From the NCBI GenBank assembly GCA_027451745.1, contig DAIDIP010000014.1, positions 1 through 64,000 of the forward strand: DNA of 64,000 bases. Reading direction: 5' to 3'. Positions 4,175-12,848 of this stretch are shown here, piece after piece; position 1 is the first letter of the stretch, and each line of letters opens with the position of its first letter. The DNA is from Candidatus Melainabacteria bacterium (GTDB taxonomy: Bacteria; Cyanobacteriota; Vampirovibrionia; Obscuribacterales; Obscuribacteraceae). Under the pieces are notes generated by a model. That model had not been told where the DNA came from, did not search any database, and was given only the letters and a program-made list of their open reading frames with translations. The translations under genes and the position numbers were made by a program.

Positions 4175-4205
4175 GTTGTGTCACAACTTTGTCACGCGTC
4201 ATAAT
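4175..4205 (+). promoter_or_regulatory. Candidate promoter with overlapping palindrome
   Basis: TTGTGT (4176-4181) and CATAAT (4200-4205) with an 18-nt spacer form a plausible sigma70-type promoter for the plus-strand TPR gene. A perfect inverted repeat, GTTGTG-T-CACAAC (4175-4187), covers the -35 element and could be an operator. A start of transcription near 4212 would rule out the upstream ATG at 4211 as the translation start. Confidence 0.4.
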
Positions 4206-10474: not shown

Positions 10475-10508
10475 TTTTCTTTCTCCATTTTAGAGACCAG
10501 ATAGTAAT

Positions 10509-10557
10509 GACCATTTGTCCTATTGGGGCAGGTTTTATTTTGATAGGACAAATGGTC
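10509..10557. repeat. 15-bp perfect inverted repeat (hairpin or operator)
   Basis: GACCATTTGTCCTAT (10509-10523) is exactly repeated in inverse at 10543-10557 around a 19-nt spacer. No T-run follows on either strand, so it is not a standard terminator. It lies between the small-gene pair (minus) and the group II intron target (plus), so it could be a shared operator or a 5'-UTR hairpin. Confidence 0.8.
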
Positions 10558-11164
10558 TTCGAACGTGCTGATAGTTTAGGCAGCTTTCGTGACAAAGTTG
10601 TGGCAGTGCGATATGAAACTGATTAAAATGAATGGAATTAATCCAAGAGCGTCACCACGCTCTTTCTTCACGTAAAGGTGTCCCAGACACTGCCTACGCT
10701 GGTAGTAAGTAATGAATCCGGCGGATAGCAAGGCACGAAAGCTTCAAATCTTTTAGCCTAAAGAAAGAAGAGGAGCAAGAAGACGACCAGAAGGGTTAAT
10801 GTAGAGTGAATCGCTGTAAGTTTCGTTAGTTTGATTCGGTGAAATAGGCTGATACACCGCGGCCAAAAGGCAAATGGGTAGGCTATTGTAGTTGTCACAA
10901 CAACAGCGTGGTGACAGAAACCCCATCGGAATAAAGGCGAAACCCTCCCTGGTCAAATGGTCTTTTAATCGGGACATAGTAAACCCCATGAGTTCTCGCA
11001 AGAGTAATTAAACCGCAAGGGATGACTAATACTTAGGGGGTAAGGGATTCTGGAGAAAGCGAAAGCTGCTCTGTAATGGAACAGATAGGGTAATACCCAA
11101 GCCGAAAGGCTGCAGACTTCCAGAAGGTTCTCAACGGTAATCAAAGTAAAGGAACCAAACTTTT

Positions 11165-12655
11165 GTGAAAGATAGAACCTTAATTGGTATCGGAGCAAAC
11201 GGACAAATTTCTCAATGGGAGGCAATTGACTGGCAGACTGTTGAAGGGAATGTTAGGAACTTAAGACGGAGAATTTACCGTGCAACTAAATTAGGTCAAT
11301 GGAATCAGGTAAGAAGCTTGATGAAATTGATGCTACGCAGTTATTCTAACTTGCTTGCCTCCGTGCGTCGAGTCACTCAAGAAAATAAAGGAAGAAAGAT
11401 ACCTGGTGTTGATCGCCAAGTAATTCTAACTCCTAAATCACGAATGGCTCTGGTGAAAGAGATGTTGAGATATACGCTCTGGAAGGCAAAACCAACCAGA
11501 CGTGTATATATTCCCAAAGCGAACAATAAAATTCGCCCACTAGGGATACCAACAATCAAAAACCGAGTCGCACAGGCAGTTGTTAAAAATGCATTGGAAC
11601 CAAGCTGGGAGGTCCGATTTGAATCAAACAGCTATGGCTTTCGACCAGGGCGAAGCTGCCATGATGCGATAAAACATATCTGGCAACGCCTGAACAAAAG
11701 CCACAAGGACCGATGGATTTTAGACGCCGATATTAAAGGCGCCTTTGATAACATTAGCCATGAATATACTCTCAAAGCAATTGGTCATGTACCAGGCAGA
11801 GAGTTAATAAAACAATGGCTGAAAGCAGGTTACGTAGAAGCTGAAATCTTGCATGCTACAGAAAGTGGAGTGCCTCAAGGGGGAATAATTTCTCCTTTGA
11901 TAAGCAATATCTGCTTAGATGGCATGCAGCAATTACTCAAAGGCAAAGCAGGGTTAATCCGCTACGCCGATGATTTTGTTGCTACAGCGCCAACGCGTGA
12001 AAAGATTGAAGCAATTGTGCCAGCTATAGAAAAATGGCTAAAACAACGCGGACTAGTAATGCATTCAGAGAAGACAAGAATTGTATCCATCCAAGATGGA
12101 TTTAATTTCTTAGGATTTTCGGTAAAGCATTACAAAGGTAAATGCCTTTTCCAACCGCAAAAGGAAAAGGTATTCGGGTTGCTGAAAGAGGTGCGCGGAT
12201 GGCTCAAACGCAATCGCTCAGCGAGTGCAGAAAATGTTATTCGCCATCTCAACCCCATTTTAATTGGTTGGTCAAACTACTACAAACATGCATCAAGTGC
12301 ACAGACCTTTTCTTTCGTTCAACACCAAATCTGGGACACAATTTGGAAATGGTGTTTGCGACGACATCCAAACAAGGGGAAATATTGGGTATACAAGAAA
12401 TATTTCCAGAATACTCAAAAAGAACGCTGGATATTCTTTAGCAAGATCACAGATAAATATGGACAATCGGAAGTACTGCAGCTCTTTAACATGAGCCATG
12501 TACGGATAGAAAGACATATAAAGGTTTGTGGAAATGCTAGCCCGGATGACCCAACTCAACAAGAGTATTGGCAAAAACGTCGGCAGCGTAGTAAAGGTAT
12601 AATGCGCATGAGTGCATATTGGGATAATAGCGATGTTCGAATACGAACAGTCTAA
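11165..12655 (+). CDS. ltrA: Group II intron reverse transcriptase/maturase (no HNH domain)
   Basis: 496 aa starting at GTG 11165, with AAAGGAAC upstream. An N-terminal RT0-type region contains LMLRSYSNLLASVR. The RT domain has RPLGIPT, YGFRPGRSCHDA, the DADIKGAFDNI block, VPQGGIISPL and the catalytic YADD (near residue 268). A maturase (GIIM/X) domain follows with LNPILIGWSNYYKH. The chain ends shortly after a KVCGNASP segment; the usual C-x2-C HNH endonuclease is absent. Mobility would then depend on priming at a nick or at the replication fork, as for other endonuclease-lacking introns. It lies within the intron RNA, and its stop is 9 nt before domain V. Confidence 0.95.
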   Translation: MKDRTLIGIGANGQISQWEAIDWQTVEGNVRNLRRRIYRATKLGQWNQVRSLMKLMLRSYSNLLASVRRVTQENKGRKIPGVDRQVILTPKSRMALVKEMLRYTLWKAKPTRRVYIPKANNKIRPLGIPTIKNRVAQAVVKNALEPSWEVRFESNSYGFRPGRSCHDAIKHIWQRLNKSHKDRWILDADIKGAFDNISHEYTLKAIGHVPGRELIKQWLKAGYVEAEILHATESGVPQGGIISPLISNICLDGMQQLLKGKAGLIRYADDFVATAPTREKIEAIVPAIEKWLKQRGLVMHSEKTRIVSIQDGFNFLGFSVKHYKGKCLFQPQKEKVFGLLKEVRGWLKRNRSASAENVIRHLNPILIGWSNYYKHASSAQTFSFVQHQIWDTIWKWCLRRHPNKGKYWVYKKYFQNTQKERWIFFSKITDKYGQSEVLQLFNMSHVRIERHIKVCGNASPDDPTQQEYWQKRRQRSKGIMRMSAYWDNSDVRIRTV

Positions 12656-12664
12656 TGAGGGCTC

Positions 12665-12736
12665 GAGCCGGATGAAGCGAAAGTTTCATGTCCGGTTCCT
12701 AGAGGAGGTAGACGCGGCGACGCGTCTACTTTACTC
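12665..12736 (+). ncRNA. Group II intron domains V and VI
   Basis: Domain V is a 34-nt hairpin (12665-12698) with the AGC catalytic triad at 12666-12668, a GAAA tetraloop and a two-base bulge region. Domain VI follows as a long stem around a GCGA loop (12716-12719 region), with an unpaired A at 12733 as the predicted branch point and a CTC closing the stem at 12734-12736. These elements identify an active group II ribozyme core. Confidence 0.88.
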
Positions 12737-12848
12737 AACGAAAATTGATTTTGTGGAACCTAGAATTAAATTGCTGTGTAAAATAACAGTGGTCTGTAGT
12801 TTGGGGAATGTTAATTTGTATAAACGCTGCTGTGATTTGCAAGAAGTA

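What the first reader, a model, noticed from the sequence alone, without database searches (positions are those of the whole stretch)
10582..12739. Complete group II intron with readable target pairing
Both exon-binding sites can be read: EBS1 (10893-10901) pairs over 9 nt with the exon right at the 5' splice site, and EBS2 (10734-10743) pairs over 10 nt with 10582-10591. Domain V with AGC and GAAA, a bulged branch A (12733) at -7 and a 3' AC agree on one set of ends. The maturase has YADD but no HNH.
Basis: seen in the sequence. Interest (0 to 1): 0.6.

Follow-up and report, generated by a model that had tools for sequence, protein, structure and literature searches.

The report
Ordinary endonuclease-less bacterial group II intron
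This is a complete, single-copy self-splicing mobile intron of a known kind (group IIB, chloroplast-like, without the usual DNA-cutting domain); its ends and one target-pairing site were read correctly, but the second pairing site was placed in the wrong part of the intron.

Summary
The intron is real: 10606-12739, 5' GUGCGAU, 3' CUCAAC, DV/DVI matching Rfam RF00029 (52 bits, E 2e-07), bulged A12733, intact RT/maturase 11165-12655 with YADD and no HNH. Domains I-II are supported by 69 compensatory pairs across eight relatives. A sister species carries the same intron at the same site, broken by a resolvase-bearing insert. EBS3 is A10934 and does not pair with G12740. The maturase is younger (dS 0.65) than its neighbours (1.5 to about 3), suggesting horizontal homing into one site. 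HNH loss is a clade trait; HNH-less CL introns are already known. Side finding of more interest: a sister clade of introns begins UCAUCG and ends GC instead of GUGYG...AY.

The parts
10606..12739 (+). Group IIB (CL-type) intron, 2134 nt, 5' GUGCGAU ... 3' CUCAAC
   Evidence: Sequence, Rfam DV-DVI hit ending at 12739, conservation in relatives, covariation in domains I-II
10593..10596 (+). IBS2 (CAAA), pairs with EBS2 10830-10833
   Evidence: Pairing scan over homologs
10597..10605 (+). IBS1 (GTTGTGGCA), pairs with EBS1
   Evidence: Pairing scan; identical in sister species
10830..10833 (+). EBS2 (TTTG), 4 pairs with IBS2; corrected position
   Evidence: Alignment column with strongest signal, z up to 9.8
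10893..10901 (+). EBS1 (TGTCACAAC), 9 pairs with IBS1
   Evidence: Sequence; z 8.1
10934..10934 (+). EBS3 (A), should pair with first base of 3' exon; mismatched here
   Evidence: 14 of 16 homologs pair, none of 2000 shuffles as good
10734..10743 (+).
11165..12655 (+). RT/maturase ORF, 496 aa, GTG start, RVT_N + RVT_1 (YADD) + GIIM, no HNH
12665..12698 (+). Domain V, 34 nt, AGC triad 12666-12668, GAAA loop
12702..12736 (+). Domain VI with bulged branch-point candidate A12733
12740..12740 (+). IBS3 (G), first base of 3' exon
10589..10604 (+). Recurrent intergenic motif GTGACAAAGTTGTGGC in the 5' exon, overlapping IBS2 and IBS1
   Evidence: 39 matches against 14 for the reversed control in the genome, contexts

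Best explanation
A complete group IIB (CL-type) mobile intron whose maturase lacks the HNH endonuclease. Inferred mechanism: the unspliced RNA makes the maturase, which helps the ribozyme splice by branching at A12733. The lariat with its RT then reverse-splices into DNA chosen mainly by the 9-bp EBS1 contact, helped by a short EBS2 contact and normally by EBS3, and is copied from a host-supplied primer (such as a nascent DNA strand) rather than a self-made nick. Shown by sequence: ends, domains, positions of EBS1/2/3, open RT/maturase frame, HNH absence. Inferred: splicing, homing, primer source. The intron seems to have reached the same intergenic site in two congeneric species after they split.
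For: RF00029 hit and ends; DV-DVI fold z -7.4 with A12733 bulged; 69 of 118 consensus pairs with compensatory change; EBS1 and EBS2 located by pairing scan with exon swaps; EBS3 column; RT/maturase domains; same intron at the same site in the sister species; maturase dN 0.10, dS 0.65 against 1.5 to about 3 for neighbours; HNH absent in the whole family clade, present outside it.
Against: EBS2 contact is only 4 bp and EBS3 is mismatched, so this copy may no longer move well. Single copy. No empty allele found. No strand bias of HNH-less relatives that would support nascent-strand priming. Nothing is shown experimentally.
Confidence: 0.9

Rival explanations
1. One reading: EBS2 is 10734-10743, pairing ten bases with 10582-10591.
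For: Ten perfect Watson-Crick pairs in the window; chance about 1.7% for one intron.
Against: The segment is conserved whatever the target, overlaps covarying helices, would leave a 5-nt gap to IBS1, and has no signal across homologs; the sister species breaks two pairs.
Confidence: 0.04
2. The intron was inherited vertically from the common ancestor of the two species and merely evolves slowly under strong constraint, rather than homing separately.
For: Same site in both species with alignable exons, the last 61 bases of 5' exon 85% identical.
Against: Synonymous divergence of the maturase part (dS 0.65) is well below that of four neighbouring genes, which constraint on protein or ribozyme does not easily explain.
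Confidence: 0.25
3. The copy is decaying: it still splices but no longer moves, as suggested by the mismatched EBS3 and the short EBS2 contact, and by the sister copy, which is already interrupted.
For: A10934 against G12740 where 14 of 16 homologs pair; EBS2 one nucleotide shorter than in relatives; interrupted sister copy; single copy although other copies of the target motif exist.
Against: Full-length open maturase; low dN/dS (0.15) in the shared part; 9-bp EBS1 contact.
Confidence: 0.4

Closest known systems
Thermosynechococcus elongatus CL/IIB1 introns (TeI4h; PDB 6ME0; PMC2882425)
   Same: RT/maturase aligned over residues 10-475, GUGCGA...AC ends, EBS1/EBS2/EBS3 recognition
   Different: T. 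elongatus protein has HNH; window protein has none; about 42% amino-acid identity
HNH-bearing CL introns of cyanobacteria such as Leptolyngbya sp. Heron Island (L042)
   Same: 53% identical maturase, alignable domain I, canonical 5' end
   Different: HNH present in L042
Introns of the same family: L051, L052, L053, L054, L055, L056
   Same: 56-62% identical maturases, same RNA architecture, HNH absent
   Different: L052, L053, L055 and L056 start UCAUCG and end GC
RmInt1 (class D, HNH-less; PMC4238363)
   Same: No endonuclease domain, so a host-supplied primer is expected
   Different: Not tested directly here; known as a different maturase class (general knowledge), while the window protein groups with HNH-bearing CL relatives

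Membership tests
Group II intron | Domain V and VI with bulged A near the 3' end | tested here: met
   RF00029 52.4 bits, gathering 40; fold
Group II intron | 5' GUGYG and 3' AY | tested here: met
   GUGCG and AC
Group II intron | Domain I-IV architecture | tested here: met
   Domains I and II: 69 of 118 consensus pairs with compensatory change; domain III not separately tested; ORF in the domain IV position
Group II intron | Splicing as a lariat | not testable with these tools
   Needs RT-PCR or an in vitro assay
Group IIB recognition | EBS1, EBS2 and EBS3-IBS3 (not delta-delta prime) | tested here: met
   For the lineage. In the window copy itself EBS3 is mismatched
CL-type intron | RT/maturase groups with CL introns | tested here: met
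   Best solved relative 6ME0; tree with its near-identical homolog L108 and cyanobacterial homologs. Formal class CL1/CL2 representatives were not in the tree
CL-type intron | HNH endonuclease, usual but not universal | tested here: not met
   No HNH; relatives outside the family have it. A minority of CL introns lack it (PMC4424553), so this does not exclude membership
Group IIC | No EBS2, insertion just after a terminator, shorter DV | tested here: not met
   EBS2 found; DV 34 nt; terminator-like stem ends about 70 nt upstream of the insertion

The most novel reading that the evidence does not exclude
The window intron is the nearest canonical-ended relative of a clade of HNH-less introns (L052, L053, L055, L056 and further copies) that changed both termini together, from GUGYG...AY to UCAUCG...GC, while keeping open maturases and spreading to several sites. 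If so, the first and penultimate nucleotides of a group II intron can co-evolve in nature.
Probability: 0.55. Interest if true: 0.6.

Novelty: new member of a known kind. Interest (0 to 1): 0.3.

Why it matters
By itself modest: it adds an HNH-less CL/IIB intron lineage in one bacterial family of the cyanobacterial phylum and shows how a long chance complementarity can be mistaken for EBS2. The related clade with altered termini would offer a natural test of the first/penultimate nucleotide contact in group II splicing.

Tried and rejected
Empty sites: a 192-base joined-flank query over 50 family genomes found none. Lagging-strand orientation bias expected of HNH-less introns: the window's + strand is G-rich throughout, which fits, but 15 loci of the family split 6 positive to 9 negative or near zero, so no support. 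Protein search of viral contigs: no relative. A DNA pattern for the UCAUCG start in viral contigs gave 57 stretches that were not examined and are probably chance. The spliced exons have no obvious host protein frame across the junction. Group IIC rejected: EBS2 is present and DV is 34 nt, although a terminator-like stem lies at 10513-10533.

Full report
What was checked. The sequence at 10606-12739 has the parts of a bacterial group II intron. It begins GUGCGAU and ends CUCAAC. Rfam RF00029 matches 12663-12739 end to end at 52.4 bits, E 2e-07. The DV-DVI stretch folds at -42.4 kcal/mol, z -7.4 against shuffles, with A12733 unpaired at -7. The ORF 11165-12655 has RVT_N, RVT_1 and GIIM domains, exceeds the cut-off of the NCBIfam group II RT/maturase model, contains YADD, and has no HNH. 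Its best solved relative is 6ME0, a T. elongatus intron maturase. The intron is single copy in its genome.

Comparison with relatives. Homologs were fetched from the same family, the phylum, and Ktedonobacteria. One phylum genome, G246, carries an intron whose maturase is nearly identical to 6ME0, so the phylum is inferred to be that of the cyanobacteria. Eight aligned 5' regions give a consensus structure of 118 pairs, 69 of them with at least one compensatory change.

Exon pairing. Each intron should pair with its own exon. In 21 aligned introns with different targets, pairing was scored at every intron column and exon offset and compared with swapped exons. Two places stand out. The other is a loop at window 10828-10833 with the exon around -7 to -14 (z up to 9.8). 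This second loop is EBS2. In the window it gives TTTG 10830-10833 pairing with CAAA 10593-10596, four pairs, directly beside IBS1. In L052 the same loop gives eight perfect pairs. The published interval between IBS2 and IBS1 in three well-studied introns is 1 to 3 bases (PMC10100991). Its CACGAAAG is near-identical in family relatives with unrelated targets, and its ends lie in covarying helices. In the sister species two of the ten pairs are broken. A ten-base perfect match appears for 1.7% of shuffled exons. I conclude that it is a coincidence.

EBS3. Among 16 introns, one column, window 10934, pairs with the first base of the 3' exon in 14, and none of 2000 shuffles did as well. The two exceptions are the window and L051, both A against G. 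The sister species has C at this place, which pairs with its G. This identifies the recognition scheme as group IIB and shows that the contact is lost in the window.

Sister species and age. G001 has the same intron at the same place, 88.6% and 86.3% identical in its two parts, but the middle of its ORF is replaced by about 3.7 kb with a serine resolvase gene. The adjacent gene and the intergenic 5' exon are 65% and 69% identical, rising to 85% in the last 61 bases before the intron. For the shared maturase part dN is 0.10 and dS 0.65; neighbouring genes have dS 1.5 and about 3 or saturated. The intron therefore looks younger at this site than the species split, as expected for homing from related donors. 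Vertical inheritance is less likely but not excluded, because only a handful of neighbouring genes were compared.

HNH loss. All full-length family members examined lack HNH; the cyanobacterial and Ktedonobacter homologs examined have it. A tree of 30 proteins puts the HNH-less family members on one branch, support 96/95, next to Leptolyngbya and G410 (the G410 frame is broken). The parsimonious reading is a single loss within a CL lineage. A published review already notes that a minority of CL introns lack the domain (PMC4424553), so this is a new member and not a new kind.

Target. The 16 bases GTGACAAAGTTGTGGC just before the insertion recur in the genome: 39 matches with up to three mismatches against 14 for the reversed control, with two further perfect copies. 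Several of the better copies lie between diverging genes. The motif may be regulatory; I did not identify a regulator.

A related clade with altered ends. L052, L053, L055 and L056 form a clade with support 100/100, begin UCAUCGAC and end CAGC or CGGC. Further UCAUCGAC starts were found at two places in G015, one in G037 and one in G028. EBS1 and EBS2 put the 5' cut before the U in L052, and EBS1 does so in L055; EBS3 puts the 3' cut after GC in L052 and L055. In L052 the interrupted RHS-type gene reads DYAG before and AGNNSEF after the intron, and an uninterrupted homolog reads YPGSGNNSQF. The first-penultimate contact is known (Chanfreau and Jacquier 1993, cited in PMC4238363), and RmInt1 has an unusual CC end (PMC4238363). 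I found no paper describing a UCAUCG start, in a limited library. This clade is outside the finding and is reported as a lead.

Verdict.

Noticed in passing
L052:202-2322, L055:2136-4266, L053, L056; also G015:C711, G015:C565, G037:C8, G028:C270: A clade of related HNH-less introns starts UCAUCGAC and ends CAGC or CGGC instead of GUGYG...AY; EBS1, EBS2 and EBS3 pairing support these ends.
   Followed up: partly
window 10589-10604 and 4180-4195; G000:C11:64746, C21:40418: Recurrent motif GTGACAAAGTTGTGRC, enriched in the genome and often between diverging genes; the intron sits at its edge. On the other strand it looks like a direct repeat of GTCAC with an 11-bp period.
   Followed up: partly
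L049:8216-11956: The sister species' copy of the intron has lost the middle of its ORF to about 3.7 kb carrying a serine resolvase, a TPR protein and two unknown ORFs.
   Followed up: partly
L087, L090 (genomes G262, G229): Two related HNH-bearing introns begin GCGCG rather than GUGCG; L090 ends CCGCU, with EBS3 agreeing with that end.
   Followed up: no
L043 to L048 (Ktedonobacter racemifer and brp13): Related introns are inserted at the YADD-coding stretch of what look like other introns' RT genes (twintron-like arrangement; exon ends TATGCCGATGACTGG or similar).
   Followed up: no
G028:C270 (L177): A UCAUCG intron start lies directly after the domain V of another group II intron, so it seems inserted in that intron's domain VI.
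   Followed up: no
L053 and L056: Introns in G044 and G028 lack parts of domain I, including EBS1, yet keep full-length open maturase frames. In L053 a similar TTTGCGAATT...TTTCC stretch flanks the intron on both sides.
   Followed up: no
window 10507-10558: Inverted repeat GACCATTTGTCCTAT / ATAGGACAAATGGTC upstream of the intron; an imperfect version is present in the sister species.
   Followed up: no
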